Source: Sphaerolaimus hirsutus (lineage: Eukaryota > Nematoda > Chromadorea > Monhysterida > Sphaerolaimidae). From it: a stretch of DNA of 64,000 nucleotides. The stretch covers positions 27,415,785-27,479,784 of the forward strand of contig OZ038452.1 in assembly GCA_964036195.1 (NCBI GenBank), read 5' to 3'. Below are positions 4,918 through 64,000 of the stretch, one piece after another. The notes below the pieces were generated by a model. That model was given only the letters and a program-made list of their open reading frames with translations, did no database searches and was not told the origin of the DNA. How positions within the stretch are numbered: the first letter of the stretch is position 1; each line of letters opens with the position of its first letter. The translations under genes and the position numbers were made by a program.

Positions 4918-6411
4918 ATGCTTGAGATTTGGGAAAGAAACATCAAAATCGCTCGGCGAGTTCACATATCAACGCAATACCCGGCATTACAGGTAGAACC
5001 AAATTTTGCACCGCCAAGAAGTGAACCATTTTACCAGACAAGACCCCCACCAGGTTATCCGCATTGCGCCACACATCAACACTAAATGCTAACTGGTTAT
5101 ATTCCTAATTCAAAGATTCCATTTGAAGTTCTTTTGTCAAGTTGTGCTTTGAATCGGGATCCCCATTTGACATTTAGTGGCGATGTCAACTAGCTTCTAG
5201 ATGTCCTTTGAATCCCTGAAATCTCAGATAATACACGACCCATTTCTCTTACAGTATATGATGATCAGACAAACCACGGAAGAACTTATGCTGACTACCA
5301 CAATCCTGAAATGACTGAAAATTTTTATCGCCCAGAGACATTTAATCCACTTATGGCACACGATCACTACAATGAATTGGGTGGGGTTGGAGTGAACAGC
5401 ACACATTGTTGTCAGGTGACAATGTCAGACCATATAAAATGTAAAGTAAAGTGATAAGTGTCATGTTTGGTCCTTTCACACGCTTCACCCACGCACAGAT
5501 TTGCATGGGAGCGCCAAAGTACCTTCACATAGATTTTCATGATCTGGTGACCAGAGGATTCCTGACACGCCATCAAGCTTTTCTCACTTTCACACGGTTC
5601 ACCCACACACATTTGTATGGGAGCGCCAAAGTACCCTCAGAGAGATTTTTGTGATCTGGTGACCAGAAGATTCCTGACCCCTCACCAAAGCAAATATGTC
5701 CGTGGGTGAAGCGTGTGAAAGCGAGAAAAGCTTGATGGCGTGTCAGGAATCCTCTGGTCACCTGGTCGAAAATCTGTGTGAAGGTACTTTGGCGATCCCA
5801 TGCAAATGTATGCGCGGGTGAAGCGTCTGAAAGCGCCAAACATGACATTTCCAACTTTACTTTACATTCTACCGGGTCTGGGACTGCCACAAGATGTGTT
5901 ACAACATTTTCTTGGCTGAGAAGGGTCAGATGCCCCCAATGCATATTGTGAGCCACACTGAAACAGATGGAGGGGCCTTGACAAACAGGATACGAATTGC
6001 TTGTGATAAACAAGCCATTGAAGAAAAAACAGAAGAGCTAGAAAATAAATCTGTGATGACAGGTCACATTTTACTACCATTTTAAAACGATTAATAGAAA
6101 AGCCTAAACTGTATTTTTACAGATTGAATTCCAGACGGTCGCTTCATACATTTACACACTACAATTCCAAACAGTGTGAATTGTTTGTCGTCTGAAGAGC
6201 ACTGTCGCAGTGCAGTGCAAAAACAAAAACTGCAAGTGACATACCCAGGATCAGATGGAAAAGTATTTTACATACGGTATTTTCTATAGAAAATGTACCT
6301 TTCTACTTTTTCTATGTCTAGCTAATAAACCTGGACTTTTCCCAAAAGTATGTAAATATAAACACCTCAGATGCAATGGGCAGTGCCTGGCTCAACGAGG
6401 TCACGTTTTAA
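4918..6411 (+). CDS. Hypothetical protein, five exons, one intron formed by a foldback element
   Basis: The model uses exons 4918-5053, 5255-5415, 5894-6062, 6135-6262 and 6322-6411 (phases 1, 0, 1, 0) and predicts 227 aa. The N-terminal third is proline/tyrosine-rich (PFYQTRPPP in exon 1, NFYRPETFNP in exon 2). The C-terminal half is mixed and looks like a folded beta-rich domain with three cysteines. No signal peptide. Intron 1 contains a partial 'CTAGTTGACAT' repeat. Intron 3 (5416-5893) is almost exactly an inverted repeat. The last exon is uncertain: the same DNA is open in a second frame to 6551. Function unknown. Confidence 0.45.
5416..5893. mobile_element. Introner-like foldback element filling an intron
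   Basis: The intron starts GTGACAATGTCAGACC. The complement of its end reads GTGGCAGTCCCAGACC, starting only 3 nt from the splice acceptor. The arms then match for well over 100 bp (shared stretches include GAATTGAC-free runs such as TGTAAAGTAAAG, GACACGCCATCAAGC and GGTGACCAGAGGATTCC). The termini belong to the same family as the many 'GGCAGTCCCAGACCCTGTAAAATG' repeats elsewhere in the window. No clear target-site duplication was seen here. Confidence 0.7.
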
Positions 6412-7724: not shown

Positions 7725-8554
7725 TCACTTATTAGATGAACTACTAGATCCGGGCCCTAAAAATGTCGTGCTAGTGTCACCTGTTAGTGGCGAATAAGCC
7801 ACATTTGTTTCTATCAGATTTTTCAATGTGAATGAGTGAGTTATCATTCCACTTGGATTTTTTTCAGTCATGCTCTTAATTTTAACCCGAATATTTTCAT
7901 TAATACCGATGCAAAATATTATTTTTGACCCTCCAATATCTGCTATGCAGTAGCAACAAGGCACTTGAGCCTTGAGTTCTCCATAAACCATTAAATCGCA
8001 TGGATGAACACGATCTGGACACAATTCCAGACTCTGCAAAATCCAAAGTCCAATCCCAAGTTGAAAAATAAAATCTAAAGTAGAAGGGACACTTAAGCAT
8101 ATATAAAATCTTCACATAAGTTAAACATCGATGCTCGACACTTTACATCACCTAGATTTTACATACATACTTGACATTGGACTTTGGCTTTTGCAGAGTC
8201 TGGAATTGGTACCTGGTAAATCCCCCATGTTGTCATAAATTCCCAACATGATCATTCCATTCTTACCCTGGAAAATTAAAATAATACAGTACTTTCCTTC
8301 AAATAGTCTAACGTCTTCTAATATAATAGGTCATTTTTGTTTCAAAAATACAATTATAAATAACTTACGGTAATCAGAATTGCATGAAATCTTTGATTTG
8401 GATTAGCATCGGGAAATGGGGGCAAAGATTTCAGAGTGATAGTGACTGGAAAGCCATGAACAATTCCCTGGTGTGTCCATTCACCATTTGCGGTAAATGG
8501 ATAGTGTGCCAAACGTTTAAAGCCAGGGGCATATTTCCGACACAAACTCGACAT
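7725..8554 (-). CDS. Beta-rich paralogue family member 2 (about 176 aa)
   Basis: Exons 8554-8369, 8267-8213 and about 8014-7725 give 176 aa. The intron after exon 1 is phase 0 and occupies the position shared by the family. The last acceptor is uncertain: a CAG at about 8038 would add family-like residues (LELCP) but breaks the frame, while a CAG at 8015 keeps it. A 31-bp inverted repeat (8023-8053 against 8177-8207) flanks exactly this intron and may mark a small rearrangement. The C-terminal end is serine-rich (GPGSSSSS). Alignable blocks with member 3 are W-x3-G-x-x-HG, PPF and CP[DN]. No enzyme motif found. Confidence 0.5.
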
Positions 8555-16633: not shown

Positions 16634-16855
16634 CCAGTGGGCAGTCCCAGACCCTGTAAAATGCCCTGTAAAATGTCAAATGTCATGCAAAGTGTCAAAA
16701 GTCATGTAAAATGTCCTGTAAAATGTCAAATGTCATGCAAAGTTTCAAAAGTCATGTAAAATGCCTGATAAATTGGCAAAGGTAAGTTTGACTTTTGACA
16801 CTTTGCATGACATTTGACATTTTACAGGGCATTTTACAGGGTCTGTGACTGACAC
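16634..16855. mobile_element. TGTAAAATGTC-family inverted-repeat element
   Basis: Left end GGGCAGTCCCAGACCCTGTAAAATG, right end CATTTTACAGGGTCTGTGACTGAC, with internal repeats of TGTCAAATGTCATGCAAAG. Same family as the introner-like elements at 5416-5893 and 57,208-57,473. Confidence 0.75.
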
Positions 16856-37974: not shown

Positions 37975-38178
37975 TTGCCACCCACAGACACTGTAAACTG
38001 CTCTGTAAAATGCCAAATGTCATGCGAAGTGTCAAAACTCATGTAAAATGTCCTGGAAACTGTCACAAAAATTTTATTCTTCACCAGTTGTCTGACATTT
38101 TTCATGACATTATACATGACTTTAGACACTTTACATGACATTTTACATTTTAGAGGGCATTTTACAGTGTCTCGGAGT
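37975..38178. mobile_element. TGTAAAATGTC-family inverted-repeat element
   Basis: GTTGCCACCCACAGACACTG at the left; CAGTGTCTCGGAGTAACC at the right, with CATGTAAAATGTCCTG-type units in both arms. Confidence 0.65.
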
Positions 38179-41100
38179 AACCACTATTTATGTATAGCAT
38201 GCATACCCTGTCACAATTTGTCACAATGTCAACTCTATTGATCGCACATTTGACAATGCACACTTAAAAATGCACACTTGACAAATGACATTCACCATAC
38301 CAATAAAAACCAACAAAACTTTATTTTGTCTCATCACATTACATTGTTCTCACTAACATATTATTTTTCATTTTTGTTCATCAAATTATGGTATCATTCT
38401 TTGTAAAGCATTCATCCAATAAAATCCTATGTAAAAATATGTTCAAATCTTTTTAAATCTTATTTAACTGTTCAAATCTTAACACAGTTTCAACTTCCGC
38501 TACCAAGTTCATGGAGTGTCAATCGATAAAATTTTGCGTACTTTACATTCCATCCATAAAATACGCAATTTAATCTTGCAGACACGCGCTCTTATTGGCA
38601 CTGAGCCAAGGGGGCGTGTCTGTTCAAAAATACGACTCGTACGCGTCTGCATGCGTGCGCGCGTGTGATGTGTGCGAGATGTTTGAACACAAGTTTTGAG
38701 ATTGTATGATGTTGTGCTGTTTTTGTGATTTGTGTCAAATATTTTTACGCGATACATGTTCGCACCAAAATTTCGACACTTTTGTCGGCAAAAAAACATT
38801 TAACTGTGGCGTTAAGAAACTTTTGTTCGGAATTCCTACATTAGCGCTTTTTCTATCAACTTGAATAATATATAAACGATATATCGCATTCAATATATAA
38901 ACGATATATCGCATTCAATATATAAACGATATGTCGCATTAAACCCGATAAAAAAGTTGCATTTCTCCTTGAAATGCGAAACTTTTCGCTTTGAACTTTG
39001 ACACTCAATCTCGCCTTTGATTTCTGATTTTGATCTGCCGCACACGCCGAAAAATGATTCATTTGCGCGCTTTATTTATTTGCGAGTGCGCCACGGCCAT
39101 TGAACTTTTGCCCCCCCCCCCCCCCCCCACGCGCAAAGTGGGACACCCCCCGCGGCATTTGTGCAGTGTGACATTAAGATGTACGGGGTGGTTCATTTTC
39201 TGTATTTGTGTTTTTGTTGGTTAGGCTTAAAGTGAATTGCTTATTGGATTAATTTGTGATTTTGACCTTTACATTGTATTTAAAAAGATTTTTTTTACAA
39301 AGTTTTCAACAAGTACAGTCCATAAGTATGGGGTATTGTCATATCAAGACTTTACCAATACAAATAATATTGTAAAGTATTTTCTGCATGTGATACCAAT
39401 TAACTGACTTGTATATCTATGCTGCAGTTAGGGTCCAGTATGGTTGTGTTGGCAAACGATTTTTTCAGTGATTTAAAAAAATGCAATACCCAGTCCAATT
39501 TTTTTTAAATCACTGGCAAAATTTTTTGGTACTCATGCACTAGGCACTTCCATGCTGATTTATATTGCTTTCTCAGCAAGAACATGCAATTTCTCGCTAC
39601 AAAATTGCAAATGGTTGATGAAATGTGATTAATGCAGCAAAAATAATTATTTAATTACTTTGCAAACTTGATAATAATAGACTTTCAAGCTTTTCAAAAG
39701 CTCTAATATAATTATATTACCACAGTAAGCATAAGTGTGCACTGGCTATCAATTTATATGGCCTTTAATTCATCTATATCCCCTCATAGCTGATTTTATA
39801 GAAAAAGGTACTATTTTGACTCAAGATATTTTTATTTTAAAATAATCGATTTTTTAAATAAGGCAGCTTAAAAAATAGATTTTTATAACCTAGTCATAAG
39901 CTTCAGATTCCATAGATTTATCTCCTACAATAATAGACGTCATGTTATATTATCACTGTTTATGAAATCTTATGTCAAAATATTCTCCACAATTATCATT
40001 TCCACACCATCCCATTTCCACTCACCATAAAAAGCTACTTCCAAAAAAGTGCACCACCCTGTACTCGAATATGCCTTGGCTTGGCAATGAATGTGTGCCT
40101 TGGCATTCATTACATTGGGCAAAAGTGTAGACTCAAAGTGAGGTTCACTAAAACCTTTGCTGGCCTCAATGCCAAATGTGCATGTGTCTCGAACTTGTGA
40201 CCTTTTTCTCGCTCTGAGCTATGCAAATTGTAATATTGCCCAGTTTTGTGGATCCTGTGGAAGTGTGCCATCTTTTATGAGTTTTTATTGCTTTTGCGAT
40301 TTGGAATATGATTTGGGTTTTTTTAGCGTTTATTGATTGTGTTTTTTATTGGTTTGTATTGAATTTTGGGCGCAGCGACTTTGGTGTCTGTCTATTTTTT
40401 ATGTTGGCATTTGCTTGAACTTTTTATCAAAATGTGACCGTGTTCTAACCGTGTTCTAATTTCTGGGTTGATTGAATTATTGATCTTTTCAGTCATTTTT
40501 ACTCCAGTTTTACGTTATTCAGCGGTATCCCAGATCCCAAAATTAGAAAAAATCAAATCCCGATGTGGAAAAGTCTATTCCGAACCCTACTACTTTGCAA
40601 AGATTCATTAAATTAATTAAACATTGTAGTATTTAGTGTATTGACTTACCACAAATTGTAGTAAGTTAATCAACTACTACACCATAAATAACCTAACTTT
40701 ATACGGCCTTTGTATTCTCATATCACACTGTATTTTGTTTAATTCGATTTCTTTTCCTAACAAAAGTAATTTCATTGAAATGTTACACTTTTGCTGCCCA
40801 CTGATAAGTTCCCAAGCCACAAGTCCCAAGGTCATAAAAATGCTAAATTTCACTCAACACTGATGAAAAAGTTCCTTTTTTCTGCGCATTTCACAATTGT
40901 TTTATTTGTTTTCTGATTGTAAAAGTGAAGCGCAAGCCAAAAATGTCATGCGCATTTTGTGATAAGAGTTTTTGTGAAAGTGTAGAATTGAAACTCGCTG
41001 ATTTTGATAGGCATGTTTAAACTTGCATCAGTGCTATCAGTTTTTTTTCACACTATGGTGAAATTTCCATTTTCTACAGTTGTAAAAGAAGTATTTTCAT

Positions 41101-42634: not shown

Positions 42635-45076
42635 ATGGACTACCGCACGCCGTTGAAAAAAGCTTCTCAAGCGAGGCGCTGTTTATTCGGCGGCGGCTCA
42701 GCGGCGGAAAATTTGTCGCAACAAAATTGGCTCGATGCCAAATTGGAGGCGATCAAAACGGAATCGATGAAAAAGTGGTCGTTTGATTTCGACAGCGATC
42801 GACCTTGCAGCAGCGGGTCGGAAAATGTCGATATGATTGAAGGAAATGGAAATGATCCCGAATGGCAGTGGGTCAAGGTTGAAGGTTTGTTTTTTCTCGA
42901 TTTTTTGGTGGAATTTTGTTGTTGTTTTTTGGCGTCGCCGAAAAAATCGTATTCGCGGGGGTGGCAAGAAAAGTGCTGTCAAAAATTAAGAGTACTTTCA
43001 AGTGCCAAAAGTAAAACTTGTAATAACATTCAAATATATATCATTGTCACTTGAAATACGTTACCACTTACTAGTTTCCTGCTACTTAGCACTTTTCTTG
43101 TCACTTGCCGAATTGACATGGTTATGTTTTTACAAATGCACATTTATTTGCTGAAGTATGAGCCCATGTTTTTATCCCGGTGCATAATAATGCTGCAAGT
43201 ATAAATTTTAGTGCTTTAATAATTGCACTTATTGCAGTTTTCTGACTTCTACGCTAGTGAAAAATTTATTCAACGTGTAAGACACCGCAAAATTAGTGCT
43301 GCTGTTTTTTATCTCAAATCTATACCCCAATCATTTAATAAGACCCTCACACAATACACATAATAAACTCTACACTTTACAACCTACGTAAACATGCGAT
43401 TTTATCTAAAATATCATGACCATATTTCCTCCCGACTCAACATAAAAATCGTTCCCACCCAAGTGCCATGTGTTCACATCTGTGCCCCGAAAAGTTTGGC
43501 TCAATATGATTCACATGAAAAATGTGCGTAAACAGGTAGACCCGTTGAACACCTGTGCTCCTGGGGTGGGATTTAGTTTGCCCGACGATTATTTTCGGGT
43601 ACCCGATAAATCGGGTTCGATTATTTTATTAATCCGATTTTTTATCCGTATCGGGCTGGTGCCGAATGTTGAAAAGAGTGAAAGAAAAGTGAAGTGTTAA
43701 GTGACAAGTAAAGTGATTAGTGACAAGACGAGTAAATTTTCGACTGAAAATACTTGTCTCGTTCGAATTTACTTGTCACTTGTCTCAGCACATTACTTTA
43801 CCAATACCACCTAAGATTTTGTGTCACGCTGAATCGACATCTAGTTTTTCCCCCGACATCCATATGCACCAGAGTTGTTAAAAATACTGAACTTTTTTTA
43901 AAGTATACGTAAACGTAAAGTATTTATTTTTTACTCACCCCCTGAGAACTGAAAACGTCAAGTAAAATATTTTCACTTTTACTCATGAGTAAACATTAGT
44001 AAATCTACTTTTTCCCTGTAAAATGTAAAAGTCAGTATTTTTGTGAAACTTTGCACCAATTTTCACCCAAATTCACTTACTTTCATAACTTTGTGGCTAA
44101 TTCCAGGGATTTTTTGCTAGGTATATGCTTATATACACATTTTTGACCCCTTTTCCTTTTTTTTAGACTATTTGCACCCTTTTTTCTCGTCTATGCCTTA
44201 AAAACTTAATGTAAAAGCCATCTGAAATACGTTTTCTGTACTCGAGTACTTTAAAAAGTATATGTAAAAGCAAGTACTGGTACTTTTTTCTGCGGAAACG
44301 TAAATGTATTTACTCAGTACTCGAGTATGCATATTTTGTGAGTAAAAGTAAATACGTTTTAACAACTATGGTATGCACATTGACGCTGCGCACACTAGCT
44401 GACTGCCTGTAAACTCAGATTCTGGTAAACTCATAAATCAGCTTTGGACGCATTTGAGTTTACTATAATTAGGTGTCTGTAAACTACAGTTGAAGATTTA
44501 GAATAACTCACTCTGATAAATTCAGATGAGTTCAAAGCTGATATATGAGCACTCAGTATGAGTTAACTCAAGTTAGTAAAATTGAATTTAACAAAAAATT
44601 AAGCTTAAATTATTATCGTCCTGTCAAATATCGGCATGAAAATTTACACATAGTCAATCGAGATGCCCCAAAATACATGTCGGGTTCCTTAAAAACGGCC
44701 CCTGGCCGAAACTGAAGATAATTTACCCATTCAACAATTCGCTTTACAATTTCCAGGCTGGCGCACACCTGTCTTCTACACGGAGCGGACAATTCCAGCG
44801 AAAAATCGAACTTCGTCGCTGAAAAAAGACACCGCGCCACGGGAATTTTTCTTGGCGCCGGGCCAAAATTCGAAGCGGTTGCCAGCGAAGAAAAAGTTGG
44901 GTGCCAAAAATGTAGACACTAGTGGTGGGAAGACTAATAGCGGTGGTAAAATTGCAAAACTTTGCACCGAGAGAAAGAGTGGGGGCAGAGTGAAGAGATG
45001 CCTTAATGGTTGGATTTATGTTTGGGATTTTATTCTTGGGGTTATTGTAGTTTGGGAAATATTTCGGCTTGAATAA
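42635..45076 (+). CDS. CDKN1: Cip/Kip-type cyclin-dependent kinase inhibitor, 189 aa (two exons)
   Basis: Exons 42635-42884 and 44757-45076 join in phase 1. The CDI domain is clear: cyclin-docking RRCLFG at residues 14-19, a linker helix (LDAKLEAIKTESMKKW), the CDK-binding strand KWSFDFD at 47-53, then EWQWVKVEG at 76-84. TPVFYTE follows in exon 2, as in p21/p27/p57 and Drosophila Dacapo. The rest is lysine/arginine-rich, consistent with nuclear entry. Such proteins bind cyclin-CDK complexes and impose G1 arrest. The intron falls just after the WxxV motif and carries a hAT-type element. The C-terminal hydrophobic stretch (WDFILGVIVVWEIF) is unusual for the family and may reflect an unrecognised further splice. 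Confidence 0.9.
43870..44370. mobile_element. hAT-type element, sister of the 27.4 kb copy, in the CDK inhibitor intron
   Basis: Ends CAGAGTTGTTAAAAATACTG / TTTTAACAACTATG; flanks ATATGCAC (43,862-43,869) and GTATGCAC (44,371-44,378), 7 of 8 identical. Confidence 0.85.
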
Positions 45077-46225: not shown

Positions 46226-48688
46226 TCACTCATTCGTCGATTTTGTCTTCACGTGAGGACAAGTGTGGCAGCTGCAGTTGCCATAATCGGTCAATAGCTC
46301 TCCATTTTCGCATGAAATGTCGTCCTCGGAAACGTCCTTGCCCACTTTACACTTGTTACACTTTTCCGCGCCCAATTTCACCATACTCTTGTGTTTGATG
46401 ATTTTCACAATCATTTTCGCTTTTTCTGTGTGAATTTTTTATATTTAAAATATTTTAATTACTTCAAGACACTTATTAAGTTAAATTTTTTTTGTTTCAA
46501 TTGTTATGACAAAAGTTACAACTTAATTACCGTATATTCTCGAATAAGATCCCTTCGAATAAATTACCCTTGTATAGACCTCAAAACTTCTGATAAAATA
46601 ATAAGTCCCATCGAATAACACCTCAAAACCTTTGATGAAATAATAAACCCAGCTTCGAATAACTCCCCCTTCTGGATGTAATATTTAGATATACGGTATA
46701 TTTTCAATTATAACTAACCAATTTTCACCAATGGGCATTTGTCCTCCTTGTAAATTGCCGCTTTGCACTTGAAACAGTCAGCTACATACGCGGCAGAGTC
46801 CTTGTGCGTCATGATTTTCTTCCAAGCTACCAGTTTCGCTGTGTTTTGGTTTTAAATTATGGAAATGTGAAATACTATGTAATTGTTTGATTGTTCTATT
46901 GGGAATTTATGAAATTTCTGACGTAATAATAAATTCACTTCAATAACCCCTCGAAATACCCCCTACCCACCCCTCAAATTTTATTAGTGAAATAATAAAA
47001 CTCAATGAACTCAATTCAAGTTAATTTTGGTAGGTAAAATTTGTACTCACCATGTTTTACAATTTTGCATTCTTTCGATTTGCCGCACCCTTCATCACCG
47101 CTGCTAATATCGCTGTAGTAACCGCGCCGAGTGCGGCGACCATCCGGGCGCCTGCGTCCGGCAATTTTGGCAACTGGTCGCGCAGCCAATTGAACGCGAT
47201 GGCGCTCGCAGAGACCGCCAGCACCATCACAACCCCCGCCGCCGCCGCCGCCGCCGCCCCCAAAACCCCCGCCACCGCCGCCAAAATCTCCGCCGCCGCC
47301 CCCGCCGCCGCCGCCGCCGCCGCCCCCAAAACCCCCGCCACCGCCGCCAAAATCTCCGCCGCCGCCACCGCCGCCGCCGCCAAAACCTCCGCCGCCGCCA
47401 CCAAAACCTCCACCGCCAACACCGTCGCCACCGACACCACCTCCGCCAACATTGTCACCACCGACACCAGCGACCAATTGTCGCTGTTGCATGTATCGAG
47501 CCACGCGAAGTCTGCGTTGCTCTTTCTGAATTCTGCGCATAATTTTAGCCTTTTTGGCCTGCCTGTACGTTGGAACTTCTTCCAATTCATCCGACAGGTC
47601 GGAGTCGTTGGGCTGCATTTGGGGGGGGGTGGTTGGGTTATTTGTGAAGTTAGTGAGATGTATATGTGTTTATAGGCATAGATAACTGTATCTACACATA
47701 AACCATTTCCTAACATCACTCAATCATCGTTTTTACGTTCCACATTGTACAGATGACAAACTGCAGTATTTGTCATGTACATTCTCTTTACACTCAATTT
47801 TAGAGGAGTATTTCGAGGGGGTTAATTCAAGGGGGTAATTCGAGGTAATACGGTAGTTTGAAATGTCACTCACAAATATCTTGCGTTTTATCCTTTCGAT
47901 GTCGCGCCAACCGTCCGCAGACTTGATGTGATCTTGTTTGGCATATCTGACAATTTTCCTAGGGAACAGTACCACACATCGTGAAAAAACACTTTATTTC
48001 CACTTGACACATTTCCTACACTTTAAATACCTTCTAATGGAATACACCTTTCTATTTCAAAGTTCAAATTCAATCATTTCAGGGGGGTGTACTTCGAGGG
48101 GGTTTATTTTTACCAGTTCAAAAACATTTGAGGGAGGGCTATTTCGAGGGGTCAATTCAAGGGGTATTTCGGGGTTTTATTCAAGGGGTGTTTTGAGGAA
48201 ATACAGGTACCCAATAGAAGTTTCTATTTGTGATTTGAACTTCGAATTAGAAGGGTGTATTCCATTAGAAAGTATTTAAATTGCAGGAAATGTGTCAAGT
48301 GGAAATAAAGTGTTTTTCACTACGTGTGGAACTGTCACCTGAATGCATGTATATCGTGGTCCAAATCGTTGTCATCTGAATCGGTGACATCACCATTGAT
48401 CGGCGGCGCCGGTTGCGGTCCCGGTGCCGGTGCCGGATCTGGAACGGGTGCCGGATCCGGACCCATTGGTTGTTGTGTCAGGGCTTCCATAGCAGCCAAC
48501 GGTTGCTGGTGATTTATTACAATTACTCTTTCCTGAATTTGTGTGGGCGGAGGTGGGGGAATTAGCTGGTATGGGGGCATATACGGCAACTGCCCCCATT
48601 CCGGTGGTACCGGATGTAAATTAGCCATGACTACATCGTTATTTATGTATTCTTCAGGATTAGCCATGATTGGATTTAGATTCTGCAT
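46226..48688 (-). CDS. Glycine-rich, C-terminally cysteine-rich protein, 438 aa (five exons)
   Basis: Exons 48688-48339, 47958-47874, 47612-47051, 46838-46719 and 46425-46226 join in phases 2, 0, 1, 1. The N-terminal region is proline-rich (LIPPPPPTQ; a PDPAPAP-type run). A basic, helical part follows (RQAKKAKIMRRIQKEQRRLR). Next is a run of about 75 residues that is nearly all glycine with interspersed F and D, encoded by a GCC/GCCGCCG microsatellite. Then come arginine-rich sequence and two cysteine clusters: CFKC-x8-C and CNKC...C...CSCHTC. The clusters suggest metal binding. No family recognised. A second ATG at 48,667 is also possible. Intron 1 is an inverted-repeat element. Confidence 0.6.
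46531..46700. repeat. TACCGTAT MITE in an intron
   Basis: TACCGTATATTCTCGAATAAG at the left and ATATACGGTATA at the right, with CGAATAA repeats between. A related fragment lies at 46,920-47,000, and a right end (CGAGGTAATACGGTAG) at 47,800-47,855. Confidence 0.6.
47959..48338. mobile_element. Introner-like element: inverted repeat filling intron 1
   Basis: On the coding strand the intron begins GTGACAGTTCCACAC. The complement of its end reads CTAGGGAACAGTACCACAC, so the arms start at the donor and stop about 5 nt from the acceptor. Arms are about 110 bp each, near-identical through GTGAAAAA, CACTTTATTTCCACTTGACA and CTAATGGAATACACC. The centre (48,075-48,210) is a poly-G MITE-like segment. 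Confidence 0.8.
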
Positions 48689-51138: not shown

Positions 51139-52096
51139 TTTTAATATTTATTTGTCATCTCTAGTCAGGTGGATCAAGGTCATGGGTTGTGTCACCTCAT
51201 GGTTACTTATTTAGGTAATAAAATGCATGTTCAATAAGTCAAGGTTATGTGTGCATGAATTAAGTAGACACTAGAATATTTACATAGAGAAATTTTCATT
51301 TATATTAAATTATTTGATTTTGTGGAAGTGAAATGAAGCTTACATTTGACACAAATATATTACATAAATATGCATGCTTTAGTTGTGTTCTCATATCTAA
51401 TATTAATGAAATACCTTCACGATTGACACTTTTCATATTTCTTAGGGAAATGTCCGGTAAAATGGTAAACATACTATATTTTTACTCATTTCCCACTTGA
51501 CACTTTGCATGACATTTGACATTTTATAGGACATTTATCACAGAATTTTACTTATCTTTTACCATTTTATTTGTCAATTTGTTCTTTTGAAGGTGTCTCA
51601 TTATTTTCAGAACACCTCTTTGTATTTATTTACATGCGGCATCTCAATAGAGGGTGCGTAAATGAAGTTGGCTTTATTCCAAAATAAGTTTTGGATACAC
51701 TTGTTTGTATACTGGTGATAACGAACAAGTGAGACATGTTATGTGAAGATGACGTTGTTTTTAATTATATTCCCCAAACATTATCGTTGAAACACAAAAA
51801 TACCAAAATTCTGGTCATTTTTCATTTTTACAATGTAAGCGTATAGAAATACGAATTTGGAATTATGCCAACTTTATTTATTTGAAAAAAGAAAGTGCGA
51901 CAGATTGCTTGAATGGTATTCGTAGGGGCTGACAATTTTTTGTTTGACTTCCTGTGTTCAATTTGTTCTATTTTTATTTACATTGATTAACTTTAGTTTA
52001 TTTTACATGTTATTTTTACATTTTATCATCAAAAATTTTTACAGGTTGTGTCAATTGTGACTGGTATTTCTACGATCAATCATTCTCGGTGGCGGA
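51139..52096. other. Intergenic
   Basis: A TGTAAAATG-family fragment at about 51,440-51,545 (CACTTTGCATGACATTTGACA). Nothing else recognised. Confidence 0.35.
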
Positions 52097-55000
52097 ATGG
52101 CGTTCTGGGCGATTTTACGTGTTTGCTGCGTTTTGGCATTGTTCCAAGCTGCCCGATCGGCAGACCCCTGCGATGGAGGGTTGTGCAAGTGCAGCGATTT
52201 TACGGCTGTTTGCAGGGTTGAAGCGCAGTATGAAATTGACAGGTTATTGTAGGGTTTTTTGAAGTTTAGCTAGTTTGAATTGTGTTTAGGAAGTTTCGAT
52301 AGTTTTTTTGGGATTTGATATAAATTTTTGTTGGACACATGACATTTCACAGGATATTTTACATGAATTTTAAAACTTAGCATGACATTTGTCATTTTTA
52401 GGGTATTTTACATTAGAATTTCAAGAAATTTTTCAACCCTAGTGACAAAAATATCCATTTTTGCAGTTACGTCACCGATACGTCCATTTTGAGGGTCGAT
52501 ATTTTCACCCCCAGCAAGTATTTGTGCGAGCGTTTCGATGATCTATTCCCGAACGCTAAGAATTACAGGTGTATTTTGGTGAGTTTTTTTACAACTATTT
52601 AATTTTGGGTGCACATATTTTGATGCGCATTGTCATGTCACTCTAAATAGACTCCACCCAATTTCAATATCCACACCTCGAAAATTTCAACACACAATTC
52701 ACATTTTCAAGTGTACAATGGGTCTAAAAACCTCATAAAATGACTGTATAGGGAAAACGATGTGTAACGAAACCAAATTCACGTGTGGTTTTATGATGTA
52801 GGCTGACGAGATCGCGTAGTGTGTCAATGACTCTACATACGTTAGTTGACATCGTCACCAAATGTCAACTGTTATCGATACAGATTCAAATCTTCATGAC
52901 TAGTGTACGAACTGTTCAAACGTAATTGTTGAATCTGTATCGATAACAGTTGACATTTGGTGACGATGTCAACTAACGTATGTAGGGTCATTTACACATG
53001 TATCGGTACCAATACACGCAGGAATTTCTGTACACAATTCACTGTAGTTGAAAAAAATTATTTTTAAAACACAGGATACCGATGTGACCGGCGAAAGGTT
53101 GCAAGACGACGGGGACGGGCAATTGGGGGAGACTTTGAAGGATTTGTTCGAATTCGTGAGTTATCATTTTGTCTGACATTCAATATTGTGTCATGGGTCA
53201 CGAGTCAGTTATTACTTGTCGGTAGGGTTCAAACGGGATCCTCCCTGATCCCGATCACGGATCCTGTGAAATTCCGGGATTTAACAGTCCCGATACCGAT
53301 TTCGATCCTGTAACCCCAATCCCGACCAATCCCGATCCCGATCCCGATCCCGAAATTCTCAAAAAAAGAATCCCGATCCCGAAATTCTTAAAAAACCAAT
53401 ACCGAACCCGATCCCGAAAAGTTAATCCCGTTTGAACCCTACTTGTCGGAACATTTTGATTTTTTACATCACTTTTCAAAGTGTTCAAAAGTTTCTGCGT
53501 TCAGTGTTGAACTTTATTATTATTTTTCAGGCCGCCGCAGCCGCCGAAGTTGCTGATCAGCGAGAACAGAGCAAAGAACAGTCTGACGAACCAAATGCAG
53601 TGGTTGGTTCAGTTTCTCGTTGTGGACACCGTATTAGTTCGAATTACCCCCTCCCCTTGAATTAAACCCCTCGAAAACCCCCCGAAAACTATTTACTACG
53701 ATCCTTACAAAAATTTCTGACGAAATAATTAACTCTTCAAATTTTTGCTGGCAAAGAAATAAAATCCCATGGGGTATTTGGTAGGGTCAGGAGTAGGGAA
53801 AATGTGTTTTTGGATACCGTTTCTCAAAATATCCATTTTTGATGAAATAATAATGTTACCTTGAATAATCGGGTTGATTTTTGGTACATAATTATACATT
53901 TGCGTACATGTATTGATATATTAATAAAATTTTGTCCCCACCCCCTTTGAAACTGTGCAAAATTTATTTTCTGATAAAATAATACACCTGGGAATATTCC
54001 CAGGAAATACGGTAGTTGAATACATGTATCTGTTTTTATTGGTTTCACAAAAATAATCCCATTTTCAGCCATCGGGTGTGACCAGTGGTGAGTAAAATGC
54101 TTTATACTAGATAGATAGAATCTAACTCACTACTAGTGTCACTACCCAACCATCACAGCGTCCACCACCACCACTGACACACCTGACACCACCAACACCT
54201 CTAGTTTTATTAACACCACGGGAACACCGGTATCATTTAAAGTGTTCATGGGTGAACAGCTGGCGGATGAAGTATGCGTACCGTGTGAACCCTGCAGACC
54301 TTGCCCAGTGTTGGTTGCTTATGGACCACAAAAGCCAGAGAAAGTATGCCCACCTGAAAAAGTCTGCCCACCTGAAAAAGTCTGTCCGGCTGAAAAAGTC
54401 TGTCCGGCTGAAAAAGTCTGCCCGGCTGAAAAAGTCTGCCCGGCTGAAAAAGTCTGCCCGGCTGAAAAAGTCTGTCCGGCTGAAAAAGTCTGCCCGGCTG
54501 AAAAAGTCTGCCCGGTCGAAAAAGTCTGCCCGGCTGAAAAAGTCTGCCCGGCTGAAAAAGTCTGCCCGGCTGAAAAAGTCTGCCCGGTCGAAAAAGTCTG
54601 CCCAGCTGAAAAAGTCTGCCCACCTGTGAATGTCTGCAATGAATCAGCACATGAGGAAGTCTGGAACTCAGAGGGAATCTGTCCACAAGTTTGCACCATG
54701 GGGTTGGCTACCCACATGGTGATAAATAGCTCTAGATTCTTGGGCTATGTGTGCACATTCCACTGTGTACATGGAGGAAAAAGGTGAGACTGATTTTAAA
54801 TATTGAATGAATTATTGAACCAATCGAATAACAAATAACTAAATAACAGCTTTTTTCCAATTTGGTTTTTAGTTGTATTTCTGGTGCTTTCTGTTTTTCC
54901 TTTTTCCTAGGTGGTGTTGGTGAATTTTTCCACTATCATTTATGTCAACTCTCAGCGCCACGGCAACCTCCACCAGCACCACGACAACCTCCACCAGCAC

Positions 55001-57530
55001 CACGACAACTTCCAGCAGCACCAGCAAACCAACGCCAACACCCATCAGCACGAGCTCGACATACACAACTGATAATTGGGGTGGTGCGATCCACCCAGCG
55101 GCTTTCCATCGGAGGAGAAGTGTTGTGTCGACTACGGTCCGGCGTGTCAACAAATTCATATAGCTTTTCAGTGTGGTGTGGTTTTTTGTAACCCTACCTA
55201 GATGGTGTTGTGGTGTTTATTCCCCATATACTTGGTGTTGTGGTGGTGATTTCCCATACTTGGTGGGTGGTGTTGTGGTGGTGATTTCCCATATACTTGG
55301 TGTTGTTGTGCTGGTGATTTCACATACTGATATTTTTTATGGCACCAGAGACAATTTTTAATGAGTAGAAAAAGTGTTTTATTCAGATAACTTTGGATTT
55401 GGGTGCGGCACCATGTAAAATGGGAAATAAATGTTTAGAATTTATAGGACACTTTGCATGACATTTTGCATGACATTTGTCATTTTACAGGACACTTTGC
55501 ATGACATTTACCATTTTACAGGACACTTTACACACATTTACTATTTTACAGGGTACTTTGCATGACATTTGTCATTTTACAGGACACTTTGCATGATATT
55601 TACCATTTTACAGGACACTTTACATGACATTTGTCATTTTACAAAACACTTTACATGACATTTGTTATTTTACAGAACACTTTACAGGTTACTTTACACT
55701 GGCATCTTACAGGACAATTTTGCACGACATTTGTCATTTTACAGGACACTTTGCATGACATTTGTCATTTTACAGCGGTAGGGAGTGGTGACATGTGAAA
55801 TTACAAACAAATTTTCTACTCATTAAAAATTGGTAAATTTTTATACACAACCAATATTTTTCACGCAGCCGTCAACTCGCTGCCCCAAAGTTCACTGCCA
55901 ATGCACGTGCCCGAACCCGTGGCTAACGTGGCAGACTATGGTCATCATGCTCTATTCATTTGCCACTCACGTGATCGCCGGCGGTCTTGTTGCTAGAAAA
56001 CAGGTGAAAAATTATATTTTTCAGGTGAAAATGTATTACAATGACAAAAATTACACTTTTTATCACAGATTCGAAAGAGACGCGAACGCCGCCGAGCCAA
56101 TCAGCGCTACGGACGCCAGGGGTCGTTGTCTCGCCAACCCGCCAGACCTGCAATTAGCACCAGGTAGTAGTTTGTATCGTGTAAAACGTAAATTTAACCA
56201 TCAAATGTTACACAAAATGTTTCAAAAGTGTAAAATTTTAGGAGGGTTTTTAATTAACTTTGTGTAACATTTGATGGTTAAATTTACGTTTTACAGGTTG
56301 CGGGGTACTTTGAGGGTTGGTAGGGTGGAGGGTTTCCCATGCACAATTTAAGTGACTCAGTAATTTACATGGTGTGGTTTCAGTAATCGGGATTGGTTCA
56401 GTAATCGGTATTGGTTCAGTAATCGGGATTGGTTCAGTAATCGGGATTGGTTCAGTAATCGGGATTGGGTTTATATGGTGTGGGTTCAGTAATCGGGATT
56501 GGCTCAGTAATCGGGATTGGATTTATATGGTGTGGATTCAGTAATCGGGATTGGTTTACAGGTTGTATTTGGAATCTGTTGGGACATAGGAGAGGGTGGA
56601 ACGTACATTTATCACATATTGTCTCACCAGATTCTTACTAATGCAGGGACCCCGCGTACAACCCGTTGAACCCGTTTCTCCAGCAGATGCAACAGGAGCA
56701 GAATCAATACATACCTGCTGCCATCTACCCACCCGTAGTCTACCCGCTGGACACGTTCGGCAACACCAGCTGTGACACGACCATGCAACGCCGCGGTGAA
56801 GCCAGCAACAACACGACTATTGATCGCGGAAACGGAAGGCGCAGCCGCGCGCGCACTGCAACCAATGTGAATAGGTGGGTAAATGGTATATTTGTTTTTG
56901 TGAGGGTTGAACGACATATTTTCATGAGAAATTCTCATTTTTTATTTGGATGAGACATGTTATTTAAGTATATTTACATACATGTCACTTAACACTTTCG
57001 CTTGACTTTTGTAATAAATAGTGAACTGATATCACTTACCACTTTATTTCGAGGGGTATTTAATTTTACGTTAGTTCACACTTTTTTCAAAAGTCACGCG
57101 AAGCAATAAAGTGTTAAGTGACAAATAACACTTTTAAAACTCTACTTTATACATTCAGGCTGCACGCTTCCCACGTGGCTGCTGTTCACAGGCAGCGTGA
57201 AGCGCAGGTGCCAATTCCACAAATTGAGAAGTAAAATGGTAAAAGATAAGTAAAATAGAGTCGATAAATGTCCTGTAAAATTTCAAGTGTCACGCAAAGT
57301 GTCAAAAGTCATGGGGAATGAGTAAAAATATAGTATGCGTTACTATCATTTTACCGGACATTTCCCATGACTTTTGACACTTTGCGTGACACTTGACATT
57401 TCACAGGACATTTATCGACTCTATTTACTTATCTTTTACCATTTTACTTCTCAATTTGTGGAACTGACCCCAGGAAGCGCAGCAGCAACCGTCAGGCACG
57501 GGTGTCCAACTGGCCGAGTCTAGGTTCTGA
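52097..57530 (+). CDS. Mosaic type I membrane protein with ([EV]KVCP[AP])n repeats
   Basis: Exons 52097-52242, 52467-52578, 53075-53155, 53531 to about 53,627, 54069-54087, 54159-54783, about 54,942-55,160, 55869-56003, 56069-56163, 56647-56874, 57159-57207 and 57474-57530. Phases agree at every joint except those around the fourth and seventh exons, whose ends are uncertain. Order: signal peptide; CDGGLCKCSDFTAVC, like a leucine-rich-repeat N-cap; an acidic/Ala segment; Thr-rich linkers; about 18 heptads of EKVCPA; a Ser/Thr-rich mucin-like stretch; CPKVHCQCTCPNP just before the membrane helix (MVIMLYSFATHVIAGGL); a basic, then Gln/Pro-rich cytoplasmic tail. A disulfide-stiffened cell-surface rod is an inference. 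The final intron is an introner. Confidence 0.7.
52830..52992. repeat. CTAGTTGACATCG-family inverted repeat in an intron
   Basis: CTACATACGTTAGTTGACAT against its complement, near-perfect arms of about 65 bp around TCATGACTAGTG. Confidence 0.8.
53223..53441. mobile_element. hAT-type element with GGGATC arms, copy 2
   Basis: Ends TAGGGTTCAAACGGGATC / complement, exact 8-bp duplication CTTGTCGG (53,215-53,222 and 53,442-53,449). Short sister (219 bp) of the element at 36,502-37,015. Confidence 0.93.
53627..54016. mobile_element. Two adjacent TACCGTATT-family MITE copies
   Basis: CACCGTATTAGTTCGAATTACC opens the first; GGGAATATTCCCAGGAAATACGGTA closes the second. They lie between exons 4 and 5 and obscure the exon 4 donor. 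Confidence 0.6.
54339..54630 (+). repeat. Coding 21-bp minisatellite (EKVCPA heptads)
   Basis: GAAAAAGTCTGCCCGGCT in tandem with a few CCA/GTC substitutions, giving about 13-14 near-identical heptads plus flanking variants. The near-identity of synonymous sites implies recent expansion or homogenisation. Confidence 0.9.
55352..55833. mobile_element. Inverted-repeat element with a tandem TTTACAGGACACTTTGCATGACATTTGTCA core
   Basis: CAATTTTTAATGAGTAGAAAA at 55,352 faces its complement ending at 55,833. Between them (55,440-55,780) lie about ten 31-34-bp units of the TGTAAAATG family. Inside an intron of the membrane-protein gene. Confidence 0.75.
56180..56298. repeat. Short perfect hairpin in an intron
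   Basis: TGTAAAACGTAAATTTAACC...AATGTTACACAAA and its complement, 37-bp arms. Followed at 56,380-56,560 by seven copies of TTCAGTAATCGGGATTGG. Confidence 0.8.
57208..57473. mobile_element. Introner: inverted-repeat element spliced as the last intron
   Basis: Begins GTGCCAATTCCACAAATTGAGAAG; ends CTTCTCAATTTGTGGAACTGACCCCAG. Arms of about 100 bp contain TGTCAAAAGTCATG-type TGTAAAATG-family sequence. GAAGCGCAG is present immediately before (57,199-57,207) and immediately after (57,474-57,482). Removal from GT to AG leaves the frame open for 19 more codons. Confidence 0.85.
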
Positions 57531-58599
57531 AGTTTGGAGGAGTGATTTTTGATGTGCACAGGGCACATTTGGGTTTTTTTTTGATGTGCATAGGACACGT
57601 TTAGTTTTTTGATGTACACAGGTACCAATTCCAAATCCTGTAAAGTGTAAAATGTCAAACAAAACAAAATTTATCACTGTACTTTACATTTTACATGACA
57701 TTTGACACTTTGCATGACATTTTACATAACATTTTGCACAAGACTTTTCACTTAAACGGATTTGGGATTGTACCCAGGATACATTACCGTATTTGCTCGA
57801 ATAATTCCTCGAAAAAATGTAGCATAGGATTTTTGATAATTTTATTACCGTATTTGCTCGAATAATTCCTTGAAAAAATGTAGCATAGGATTTTTGATAA
57901 TTTTATTACTGTATTTGCTAGAATAATTCTCCTTGAATCATTGATTTTTAAAATCCAAATACCGTATTTGCTTAAATAATTCCTTTGGAAATTGAGGGGT
58001 TCCCATGAGAACTAAATTTTTGTGCATTTTTCTGATTCAATAGTGTCACCACTGCTAAATGGTACCCCCTTGAATTCTATCAAAGATAAAATTTCACTTA
58101 CCGACATTGGGTACCATTCCGTGTTTCCATTTTTAGATTCGGTAGGCAGTAGGGTGTTTAGTATGGAAACCTACCATAACTCACAAGTATGAAGTATTCA
58201 TTAAATTATGGTAGGATTCTGTGTATACTTTGCAACCCACCAAATATACATTCACTTTTTTTATGTGACATCGTTTTTTAAAGTAGTGGACAGCGTGATT
58301 CATTCTAGATGGGCATTTTTCGTGATTTAAAATCGATTAGGTACACACCATGATCCTGTAAAATGTCAAATATCATGCAAAGTTTAATATACAGTACCTG
58401 ATCGATTTTGGTACAGTAGCCTTAACGAGTTTCTAGTTTTTGCCCCAGTGAATTGTTTTTTGTACTGCCTGTGAGCAGTTTTTGTTTTATCTGTGAGCAG
58501 TTTGTTGTTTTTCTCTGAATTTGCGGTAAAGTAAATGTGTGAAAATTGAATTTGGACACTAGACAAAATAACGCAGTTGTTCGCTGAGTAGGATCTGGG
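57531..58599. other. 3' flank and repeats
   Basis: 57,600-57,760 is a TGTAAAGTG-family element. At 57,787-57,985 the phrase TACCGTATTTGCTCGAATAA occurs three to four times in tandem. At 58,155-58,260 the GGAAACCTACCATA repeat of 18.06 kb recurs. No gene seen. Confidence 0.5.
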
Positions 58600-60727: not shown

Positions 60728-60978
60728 AACAATGACTGAAATGTGCGAAATGTGCAGTTCTTATACTCACCCGGTTCACTTTTTACCGATGTAAAAAATG
60801 CATTTTTGTACTGAGTATGGAATATTGCTAGAGCAAAATATTGTTATTCATACCCATGCAAAACCTATTTTTGGTTAGACAAAAATTTCAAACAGTACAA
60901 AAATGCATTTTTTACATCGGTAAAAAGTGAACCGGGTGAGTATAAGAACTGCACATTTTGCACATTTCAGTCATTGTT
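60728..60978. promoter_or_regulatory. Inverted-duplicate bidirectional promoter
   Basis: Two arms of 86 bp (60,728-60,813 and 60,893-60,978), 85 of 86 positions complementary by eye, separated by 79 bp. Each arm has its own TATAAG (plus 60,941-60,946; minus 60,760-60,765) and, about 28 bp on, TTCAGTCA, which fits an initiator. The arms point outward, one at the gene ending at 59,731, the other at 61,049. Confidence 0.8.
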
Positions 60979-61936: not shown

Positions 61937-62440
61937 TTATTCTTTTATTAGTTTTATCGCATTTTGAGTAAGATTATCCAATGATACTGTAGGAAACAAC
62001 ATTCTAAATAACAATGATATATTATTTTTACAACGGTTAATCACTTTAATAACTTCTCCTATTGCTATTCGTGTATCAAATAATAATACTAATTTTACAA
62101 ATATGAGTGCATAAATACCACATTTTGATGAATCTGCTTTTTGGGGTTGTATGCTATTTATTATAACATTACTACAACCTGGTACAAAATGTTTCAATAA
62201 AAATTCAATGGTTTTATTGTGGAGATTTTTTGCACCCAAACTATCAAATAAAATGGCAGTATTCTGCCCACTACGGTACAATGCAACAAAATGACCATAA
62301 GGTAAATCACAATATTGTAAAAAAACAATAACAGCACGTCTTTCGCCTAGCGGAAATACATTCTGCAATGTCACGCAATCTACATTAGATTTAATAATAG
62401 GGTCATGAAGTAAAATCTGGCGAATATCATTGATTTCCAT
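61937..62440 (-). CDS. PRO: Adenain-like cysteine protease (Polinton PRO), 167 aa
   Basis: Single exon. The catalytic set of the C5/Ulp1-like clan appears in order: His in PYGHFVALYR, Asp in AILFDSLGA, Gln in IQPQKADS and Cys in SSKCGIYAL. In adenoviruses and Polintons this enzyme matures capsid proteins. The ATG at 62,440 lies 2 bp after the capsid gene's stop codon, so the two may be expressed from one transcript, or PRO from its own promoter inside the capsid gene. No internal stop. The protein is about the size of its Polinton relatives, slightly shorter than adenain (about 200). Confidence 0.85.
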   Translation of the reverse strand: MEINDIRQILLHDPIIKSNVDCVTLQNVFPLGERRAVIVFLQYCDLPYGHFVALYRSGQNTAILFDSLGAKNLHNKTIEFLLKHFVPGCSNVIINSIQPQKADSSKCGIYALIFVKLVLLFDTRIAIGEVIKVINRCKNNISLLFRMLFPTVSLDNLTQNAIKLIKE

Positions 62441-62442
62441 AA

Positions 62443-63864
62443 TCAATAATTAGCATTACTCAAGATGGTTCTATCAGAATATAAATGAATAGAAGCTATT
62501 GTGAACATGAATACCAATACCGTTAACCCATTAGCATCAGTAGGTTTATGGAATCTAAGATCAACACCTAAACTTCCAATACTGTGAAGATTGCTCTGTT
62601 CTCCTGAAACTGCACAAGCCGTGGGATCAACGGCTAATAAAAACCTTCCCGTTTTAAAATCCTCAAACGACACAGAATTTTCAACACCAAAATTCTTCTT
62701 CAGACATCTGCACAACTCTACATAGGCAAGTTCGTATCCAAAGTCTGACTTGGGTGCCAAATCAAATTCATACGGATTTAATGGGTGTCGTGAGGAACCA
62801 AAAATTACCGATGCCCTTTGAATATTAGCTGGTGAAAAACTGAACTTTTGTTGAGACACATCATTTGTGAGGTATCGATTTTTATCCAAAAATTGTAGGA
62901 AAACAAATGAAGGAAGTTTTCCACTCATAATAGCATTTGTTGAGGATTCTTGAGTTCCAGGTTGTATTTGGACTCTAGCCACGCGGCAATTCAAAAAGTG
63001 CATTTTCAACGGTTTTCCAAGTAACATTTTCTCAACTGCCAAGCCAATTTCAGCTGCTGGCTGTAAAAATCTACCAAATAACTCAACTTTTAAGAATTTA
63101 AATTTATATTTTGACACTTGGTCACGAAAACCTGGCGCTTCATTCTCTTTTTTGAAACATTCTAACATGAATTGATCACTATTACGCTCCAATTGAAATT
63201 TTATTGGGAAGGAAGGAGGCCAATATCTCTTCACGCTGAGTAAATCCATCAACAGAGGGGCCATACTATTGCAAATTCTAGAACCTTCTATCATTTTTGC
63301 CCTTTCTTTGAAAGATTCAGTCATTATATTCGATTTTCTGTAGTTTTCCACAAACCATCCTTGTATTTCCTTTTGTTTGTCGTATTTTTTCATATCTTCC
63401 AGAACGTTATTCTTTATGTCAGCTAGATAGCTGTAATCTGAAACACATTCCATAATCAATTGTTCTTTTGAGAATATCTTCATCGTTCTCCACATAGTTT
63501 GAGCGATACCCGGAATAACGGCAACCCAATCAGTACAAACTTCTTCCGGAGTACCAAAAGTTGTTGGAATTTCATTCCCATCATCTTTTGTAACCTTAAA
63601 TCGTACCCTCATCCACAAATTACTGAGATCAAGGTAATACTGGGATGAATTTACTTCAAATGACCAACTAGTGCTGTCTTCTTGATGTTGAGTAACTAAC
63701 GGTATTGGTAAAAAATTTTGCTGTACAAATGCGCTATCTATAGTTGGAGCTTTGTAATACAATAGTTCATCTGGAGTTACAAAATTACTGTCGATATCAG
63801 GTTTTGATTTTAACAATGTTTCGGGTGCGACAACAGCACTCCCTGCTTCGTTTGTTGCAGCCAT
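62443..63864 (-). CDS. MCP: Polinton/Maverick major capsid protein (double jelly-roll), 473 aa
   Basis: Single intact exon starting at ATG 63,864; seven codons upstream are open but lack ATG. It follows the layout of the F54H12.2-like family now recognised as Polinton capsid proteins. An N-terminal strand is followed by a LDLSNLWMRVRFKV segment, then a region with WRTMKIFSKEQLIMEC, then MDLLSVKRYWPPSFPIKFQL and a second jelly roll with conserved FLNCRVARVQIQPGTQ. Length is within the family range (roughly 450-650). An uninterrupted frame of 474 codons in otherwise decayed DNA argues for a young or maintained element. The integrase, polymerase and ATPase genes expected of a full element would lie beyond 64,000 or are absent. 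Confidence 0.82.
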   Translation of the reverse strand: MAATNEAGSAVVAPETLLKSKPDIDSNFVTPDELLYYKAPTIDSAFVQQNFLPIPLVTQHQEDSTSWSFEVNSSQYYLDLSNLWMRVRFKVTKDDGNEIPTTFGTPEEVCTDWVAVIPGIAQTMWRTMKIFSKEQLIMECVSDYSYLADIKNNVLEDMKKYDKQKEIQGWFVENYRKSNIMTESFKERAKMIEGSRICNSMAPLLMDLLSVKRYWPPSFPIKFQLERNSDQFMLECFKKENEAPGFRDQVSKYKFKFLKVELFGRFLQPAAEIGLAVEKMLLGKPLKMHFLNCRVARVQIQPGTQESSTNAIMSGKLPSFVFLQFLDKNRYLTNDVSQQKFSFSPANIQRASVIFGSSRHPLNPYEFDLAPKSDFGYELAYVELCRCLKKNFGVENSVSFEDFKTGRFLLAVDPTACAVSGEQSNLHSIGSLGVDLRFHKPTDANGLTVLVFMFTIASIHLYSDRTILSNANY

Positions 63865-63925
63865 TTCTAACAACAAATGTAACAAACAATAATAATTAAT
63901 GTGTGAAAATAAAACAACAACATTG

Positions 63926-63933
63926 TTTATATA
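63926..63933 (-). promoter_or_regulatory. TATA box of the capsid gene
   Basis: TATATAAA on the minus strand, 62 bp upstream of the capsid ATG. Confidence 0.6.
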
Positions 63934-64000
63934 CTGGTAGCCTGTTAGCTACCTACTCAGTTCACCTAGGGAAAAGTGGTATCGTGACGGGATTCTTCTT

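What the first reader, a model, noticed from the sequence alone, without database searches (positions are those of the whole stretch)
57199..57482. An introner caught with its target-site duplication
A foldback element of 266 bp begins GTGCC and ends CCCAG. It is bounded on both sides by the exon sequence GAAGCGCAG (9 bp, or 8 plus one chance match). Splicing from its own GT to its own AG joins two in-phase exon parts (the protein then reads EAQ twice at the junction) and extends the frame from a premature TAA inside the element to a TGA at 57,530. The element has thus created an intron, supplying both splice sites, in a gene for a membrane protein. Introners of this kind are known from only some animal, algal and protist lineages.
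Basis: seen in the sequence. Interest (0 to 1): 0.92.

Follow-up and report, generated by a model that had tools for sequence, protein, structure and literature searches.

The report
Mobile elements that became gene introns
A short hairpin-shaped mobile DNA element appears to have jumped into the coding part of what looks like an animal gene and to have become an intron that can be cut out of the message, and three sister copies in neighbouring genes appear to have done the same.

Summary
A 266-bp foldback at 57208-57473 reads GT...AG, has GAAGCGCAG on both sides, and its removal joins two exon parts in frame. It is the last intron of an in-phase five-exon chain.

Two points of the interpretation change. 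First, six relatives with a similar terminal repeat lie in the window. Of the seven, 4 have exact 3-bp CAG or CTG direct repeats at their ends, 11 of 14 flanking triplets are CWG, and none of the five other copies tested has a 9-bp duplication. So the duplication is most likely CAG (3 bp): the element gives the GT, the second target copy gives the AG, and the mRNA is unchanged. The 9-bp repeat would be an older EAQ-EAQ tandem.

Second, it is not a lone case. Three relatives (48338-47959 minus, 8212-8015 minus, 5416-5893 plus) also run from CAG|GT to AG| between open frames of three other gene models.

Best reading: an introner family made of CWG-targeting MITEs, resembling NuwaI of the PIF/Harbinger (PHIS) superfamily, probably in an animal. 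No RNA, orthologue or whole genome could be examined; the species is unknown, and frame openness alone is not significant for the finding's own copy (P 0.24).

The parts
57208..57470 (+). Foldback element proper (263 bp) under the 3-bp reading: terminal repeats GTGCCAATTCCAC... and, from the other end, GGGTCAGTTCCAC...
57205..57207 (+). Left CAG: first copy of the probable target duplication and last three bases of the exon (5' splice site CAG|GTGCCA)
57471..57473 (+). Right CAG: second copy of the probable target duplication, gives the 3' splice AG
57199..57207 (+). GAAGCGCAG, left copy of the 9-bp repeat (codons E-A-Q)
57474..57482 (+). GAAGCGCAG, right copy of the 9-bp repeat (codons E-A-Q)
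57208..57473 (+). Predicted intron (266 bp) made by the element plus one CAG
57159..57207 (+). Exon part before the element, GC 0.65
57474..57530 (+). Exon part after the element, to the TGA, GC 0.61
55869..56003 (+). Exon of the same gene model (holds a hydrophobic stretch)
56069..56163 (+). Exon of the same gene model
56647..56874 (+). Exon of the same gene model
47959..48338 (-). Sister element as predicted intron (380 bp): ...ATTCAG|GTGACA...TTCCCTAG|GAAAAT; frame HDIHAF-R-KIVRYAKQ
8015..8212 (-). Sister element as predicted intron (198 bp): ...TACCAG|GTACCA...TGTCCAG|ATCGTG; frame MGDLP-DRVHPCD
5416..5893 (+). Sister element as predicted intron (478 bp): ...TGTCAG|GTGACA...CCACAAG|ATGTGT; frame STHCCQ-MCYNIF
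16638..16855 (-). Sister element, CAG/CAG on the + strand, splitting a minus-strand Kelch-like frame that reads CTG; not an exact GT-AG intron
57622..57774 (+). Sister element, CAG/CAG, about 90 bp after the stop codon of the finding's gene; no open frame across it
37975..38183 (.). Diverged sister element, CTG/CTA

Best explanation
The element is one copy of a family of non-autonomous DNA transposons (foldback MITEs) that insert at CWG and duplicate those 3 bp. When the coding strand reads CAG, the left CAG ends the exon, the element's terminal repeat starts with GT and makes the 5' splice site, and the second CAG gives the 3' AG. The spliceosome would then remove the element plus one CAG, leaving the mRNA as it was before insertion. 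The hairpin may help by bringing the two ends together. Shown here: the element and its ends, CWG at most ends of the family, and four copies lying exactly as GT-AG stretches between open frames. Inferred: transposition, splicing, the hairpin's role, and the parent transposase (NuwaI-like, PHIS superfamily).
For: Seven two-ended copies with similar terminal repeats; flanks CAG/CAG, CAG/CTA, CAG/CAG, CAG/AAG, CAG/CAG, CAG/CAG, CTG/CTA: 4 of 7 exact, 11 of 14 CWG. Five of the seven came from a complementarity-only scan of 50 foldbacks. In 4 of the 7 both intron ends fall on the element's ends and the frame is open across the join: P 0.24 (finding), 0.011, 0.084, 0.018 against random junctions. 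A codon model that leaves out the tested gene ranks the predicted frame first of three forward frames in 8 of 8 flanking exon parts, first of six in 6 of 8 (one tie, one miss). Where the right CAG has changed (AAG at 5893; CTAG at 47959) the AG is kept. GC profile. Five-exon phase.
Against: No transcript or orthologue seen; own-genome search did not complete (14 tries). The 5' splice site CAG|GTGCCA is weak (3.5 bits by a matrix from memory; the nine introns of the gene model span 2.9-9.4) and a stronger donor-like site (4.9) lies inside the element at 57239. Only 18 codons follow the element before the stop, and frame openness alone is not significant for this copy. The 9-bp repeat must be an older tandem under this reading; such X6-CWG-X6 sites are 3 of 1623 CWG sites in the window. 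A scan that asks only for a triplet repeat plus 20-nt inverted ends shows no clear excess for CWG over other triplets. Two of the seven copies are not introns by this test (57622, 16638; P 0.77 and 0.80); 37975 was not tested.
Confidence: 0.72

Rival explanations
1. Introner with an 8-9 bp target duplication: the element is 57208-57473, carries both splice sites and adds EAQ to the protein.
For: Perfect 9-bp repeat exactly at the ends of the GT-AG stretch.
Against: The five other copies compared have no such repeat; by my count their 9-mers agree at 2, 2, 2, 4 and 4 of 9 places, although two of these copies have arms 91% and 98% alike. It needs an element whose right end is 3 nt longer than its left and always ends in the triplet that stands at the left.
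Confidence: 0.12
2. The elements are plain insertions that are not spliced: the finding's gene simply ends at the TAA inside the element and the protein has a short new tail; the other sites are broken genes.
For: Weak 5' splice site; only a short frame after the element; openness not significant for this copy.
Against: Four copies with GT at one end, AG at the other and frame kept, with P 0.011, 0.084 and 0.018 for three; codon frame signal after each element, although weak for the parts at 8012-7728 and 47957-47874 (P 0.31 and 0.17).
Confidence: 0.1
3. The elements landed in older introns and happen to fill them.
For: Other introns of the same gene model hold foldbacks well inside them (56180-56295, 52820-52998).
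Against: In four of four cases both intron ends agree with the element's terminal repeats and no other intron sequence is left.
Confidence: 0.03

Closest known systems
Introners of Gozashti et al. 2022 (PMC9860276), in particular the Chrysochromulina mode of its Fig. 2C
   Same: Transposon-made introns; that mode carries its own 5' splice site and takes the 3' one from the target duplication (legend read). Many families have TSDs and/or TIRs.
   Different: The Chrysochromulina case has 4-bp duplications and no inverted repeats. In that survey introners were found in only two animal groups. Whether the present family is among its 548 families was not tested.
Aureococcus introners, Fig. 2F of PMC9860276
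   Same: Insertion inside a coding exon with in-frame splicing
Amoebophrya introner elements (PMC7789003, passages read)
   Same: Inverted repeats at the intron ends forming a hairpin, direct repeats of 3-5 nt over the exon/intron borders
   Different: Dinoflagellate; mostly non-canonical splice sites; inverted repeats of 8-20 nt.
NuwaI transposons, PHIS superfamily (PMC4482050, passages and section 7)
   Same: CWG target duplications, short terminal inverted repeats, animals
   Different: NuwaI repeats usually start GGG, here mostly GTG; no transposase seen here; intron making is not mentioned in the passages I read.
Oikopleura dioica introners
   Same: Named as an early-described animal case in a passage of PMC10597677
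   Different: Not compared here; details not read.

Membership tests
Introner | Several similar introns in different genes, with similarity reaching the splice sites at both ends | tested here: met
   Four copies, similar over the terminal repeats; interiors differ, so similarity is not end to end
Introner | Spliced from transcripts | not testable with these tools
   No RNA data
Introner | Intron absent from orthologues at the same place | tested here: inconclusive
   Three protein searches gave no relative, two of them with proteins from these genes
Introner | Marks of transposition: target duplication and/or terminal inverted repeats | tested here: met
   inverted repeats in all seven, exact CWG repeats in 4 of 7
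NuwaI (PHIS superfamily) | 3-bp CWG target duplication | tested here: met
   4 of 7 exact, 11 of 14 triplets CWG; the triplet scan shows no excess over other triplets
NuwaI (PHIS superfamily) | Terminal repeats of 12-61 bp, usually starting GGG | tested here: inconclusive
   Length of the shared tip fits; the tip is mostly GT, GGG only at 57470
NuwaI (PHIS superfamily) | DDE transposase and Myb/SANT protein in the autonomous element | not tested
   Only 17 protein stretches of the window were scanned with Pfam; genome search not answered
MITE | Short, no coding capacity, terminal inverted repeats, target duplication | tested here: met
   Lengths 153-475 bp, repeats and flanks; coding capacity judged from length only

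The most novel reading that the evidence does not exclude
An animal genome is being filled with introns by CWG-targeting, PIF/Harbinger-related MITEs whose target preference itself writes the splice sites: CAG before the element, GT at its tip, CAG after it. Any such family with a GT tip would be a ready-made introner whenever it lands on CAG in the coding sense, and its insertions would be silent at the mRNA level.
Probability: 0.5. Interest if true: 0.87.

Novelty: new member of a known kind. Interest (0 to 1): 0.74.

Why it matters
How new introns arise is an old question, and recent gains in animals are rarely caught; a 2022 survey found introners in only two animal groups (PMC9860276, section 4). 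Four look-alike introns in 64 kb would, if typical (one window, looked at after the fact), mean a very large number genome-wide. The model makes sharp, cheap predictions: introns flanked by CAG/CAG, silent in the mRNA, and an excess of coding insertions where CAG falls on the coding strand. It would tie intron gain to a transposon superfamily through its target site.

Tried and rejected
Rejected: a 9-bp duplication as the family rule. Not counted as a fifth intron: the relative at about 51425-51596, which shares the interior (85% over 148 nt) but has other ends. Partner ends for the single ends at 28215 and 30476 did not beat shuffles; those for 528 and 26758 did, but on interior repeats only, without a clear end. 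The matrix scan for terminal repeats found nothing beyond its seeds: 18 hits at score 12 or more against 6.0 expected, and by my count 13 of the 18 are seeds. The scan for CWG repeats plus 20-nt inverted ends gave 20 rows at 13 of 20 or better; 4 are family copies at their ends (16638, 57208, 57622, 8018), the rest overlaps, a nested foldback or chance, and at 14 of 20 the triplets CAG (6) and CTG (5) are not clearly above others (GCG 9, GTT 6, AAG 5). In one search the loose core motif was found near both ends in 16 of 50 foldback rows; the five taken as family were those in register with the arms, judged by eye.

No protein relatives. The two solved-structure searches gave nothing useful: no hit, and four hits at E 0.22-0.4. 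No Rfam match at gathering scores and no tRNA. Pfam gave no hit at all for the joined 8018 and 48338 proteins and the Kelch-like joined piece, and only hits below the curated cut-offs for the other four.

Literature, held open library only, 10 searches. Introners with Harbinger: one paper, PMC8476143, one mention of each, not read. Intron gain with Harbinger and splice site: four papers listed, not read. NuwaI: 82 papers by word start, 10 listed, PMC4482050 by far the main one. Introner with four animal or MITE terms, at least 3 of 5: 503 papers, 10 listed, none of the 10 holds introner. Introners with metazoa: three papers. Introner alone: 67 papers, 40 listed. Others. I saw no paper that joins NuwaI or CWG elements with introners; subscription papers and supplements were not searched.

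Full report
What is there. The sequence facts of the finding hold: a 266-bp stretch 57208-57473, GTGCC...CCCAG, between two copies of GAAGCGCAG. Its arms are 94.3% alike over 123 aligned nt, and as RNA it folds at -182.1 kcal/mol, z -25.5. Around it a gene model can be read: exons 55869-56003, 56069-56163, 56647-56874, 57159-57207 and 57474-57530 join in phase to 187 residues and a stop. Upstream, six more exons join in phase from an ATG at 52097 to 54783; the link between 54783 and 55869 was not resolved, so they may be one gene or two. GC is 0.65 and 0.61 in the exon parts beside the element, 0.35 in the element and 0.38 in the 90 bases after the stop; about 3% of 57-nt windows reach 0.61. 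So a GC-poor piece sits inside a GC-rich stretch.

The target duplication. The two ends align as CAG-GTGCCAATTCCAC and, from the other side, CTG-GGGTCAGTTCCAC, so CAG stands outside the inverted repeat on both sides. A scan by complementarity alone gave 50 foldbacks; five carry the terminal motif at both ends in register (judged by eye among 16 rows with a loose match). A motif search adds 57622-57774 (that motif contained CAG, so this copy is not independent), and the inverted-repeat list with a matrix scan adds 37975-38183. Flanks, along the strand given: CAG/CAG (57208), CAG/CTA (48338), CAG/CAG (8212), CAG/AAG (5416), CAG/CAG (57622), CAG/CAG (16638), CTG/CTA (37975): 4 of 7 exact, 11 of 14 triplets CWG. 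The 48338 copy reads CTAG at its right end and may be CAG with one inserted base; that is inference. A 9-bp repeat was seen in the finding's copy alone of the six compared. I therefore take CAG as the duplication and GAAGCGCAG-GAAGCGCAG (EAQ-EAQ) as older. That costs something: such X6-CWG-X6 sites are 3 of 1623 in the window. A scan that asks only for a triplet repeat plus inverted 20-mers does not single out CWG, so the CWG rule rests on the family, not on the window at large.

Sister introns. Searches joined the flanks of the other copies. At 48338-47959 (minus) the frame runs from an ATG through DDNDLDHDIHAF-R-KIVRYAKQDHIKSADGWRDIERIKRKIF to a GTGAGT donor, and the next exon continues in phase. 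At 8212-8015 (minus) it runs GKNGMIMLGIYDNMGDLP-DRVHPCDLMVYGELK... to a stop 95 codons on; the exon before it appears to join in phase at a GTAAGT donor (by eye). At 5416-5893 (plus) it runs ...NELGGVGVNSTHCCQ-MCYNIFLAEKGQMPPMHIVSHTETDGG... In each, the intron ends are the element's ends. Against 20,000 random junctions the openness has P 0.011, 0.084 and 0.018, and 0.24 for the finding's copy; 57622 and 16638 (plus) give 0.77 and 0.80. Against 102 CAG|GT..NAG pairs of the window the four values are 0 of 102, 0.14, 0.04 and 0.25. A codon model that leaves out the tested gene ranks the predicted frame first of three forward frames in 8 of 8 flanking parts (for the short part 8266-8213 the predicted frame is the printed f2), and first of six in 6 of 8, with one tie and one miss. 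Single P values run from 0.004 to 0.31, the latter for the part at 8012-7728; for 8266-8213 the printed value belongs to the wrong frame and is not used.

How it would work. A transposase cuts at CWG and duplicates it. If the coding strand reads CAG, the left CAG with the element's GT makes the 5' splice site, the right CAG is the 3' splice site, and splicing returns the old mRNA. The decayed copies agree: where the right CAG has changed (AAG; CTAG) the AG has stayed. The donor is weak (3.5 bits by a matrix from memory; a 4.9-bit site lies at 57239), so the hairpin, or weak splicing, may matter; neither was tested. In the 16638-16855 copy the host frame (Kelch-like: upstream exon Kelch_1 E 0.021, below the curated cut-off, while the joined piece itself had no Pfam hit) reads CTG, so no AG is on offer. 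The empty site is in frame (TYSLVRP-GRRGCMVILD); a rescue by a GTGAGA donor just upstream and TTTTACAG inside the element is possible, read by eye.

Comparison. Introners were reported in 175 of 3,325 genomes but in only two animal groups (PMC9860276: abstract and section 4 read). A family that carries its 5' splice site and takes the 3' one from the target is described there (Fig. 2C legend). Its methods section notes that where introns are always preceded by AG the duplication is hard to call unless inverted repeats help; here the inverted repeats help. CWG duplications mark NuwaI, reported from 16 animal genomes (PMC4482050, section 7). Membership is not shown: no transposase was sought in earnest and the tips differ. 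The animal origin rests on one Pfam hit above its cut-off, a cyclin-dependent kinase inhibitor domain at 42578-43054, and on general gene structure.

Limits. The window's genome could not be searched, no RNA or relative was available, the species is unknown, and one window cannot give a genome-wide rate.

Noticed in passing
51425-51596: A foldback that shares 148 nt of interior (85%) with the finding's element but has quite different ends (TAATGARAYACCTTC, perhaps with a TA duplication): the same interior under two kinds of tips.
   Followed up: partly
16638-16855: Family element splitting a Kelch-like minus-strand frame in the CTG sense; the empty site is in frame and an exon donor plus an acceptor inside the element could rescue it.
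   Followed up: partly
5547-5761: Nested foldback inside the 5416 element, CTG on both sides and 20 of 20 matching inverted ends, overlapping a tandem repeat with a 112-nt unit at 5473-5678.
   Followed up: no
60728-60978: Foldback with 86-nt arms, 99% complementary, probably a young insertion.
   Followed up: no
61937-63948: Two adjoining minus-strand ORFs of 170 and 501 aa that look viral or Polinton-like from recall; Pfam gave nothing above its cut-off.
   Followed up: no
54341-54621: About 15 units of an 18-nt repeat coding for EKVCPA in the long exon of the same gene region.
   Followed up: no
56364-56556: Array of TTCAGTAATCGGGATTGG units inside the intron 56164-56646, offering many TTCAG steps upstream of the predicted 3' splice site.
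   Followed up: no
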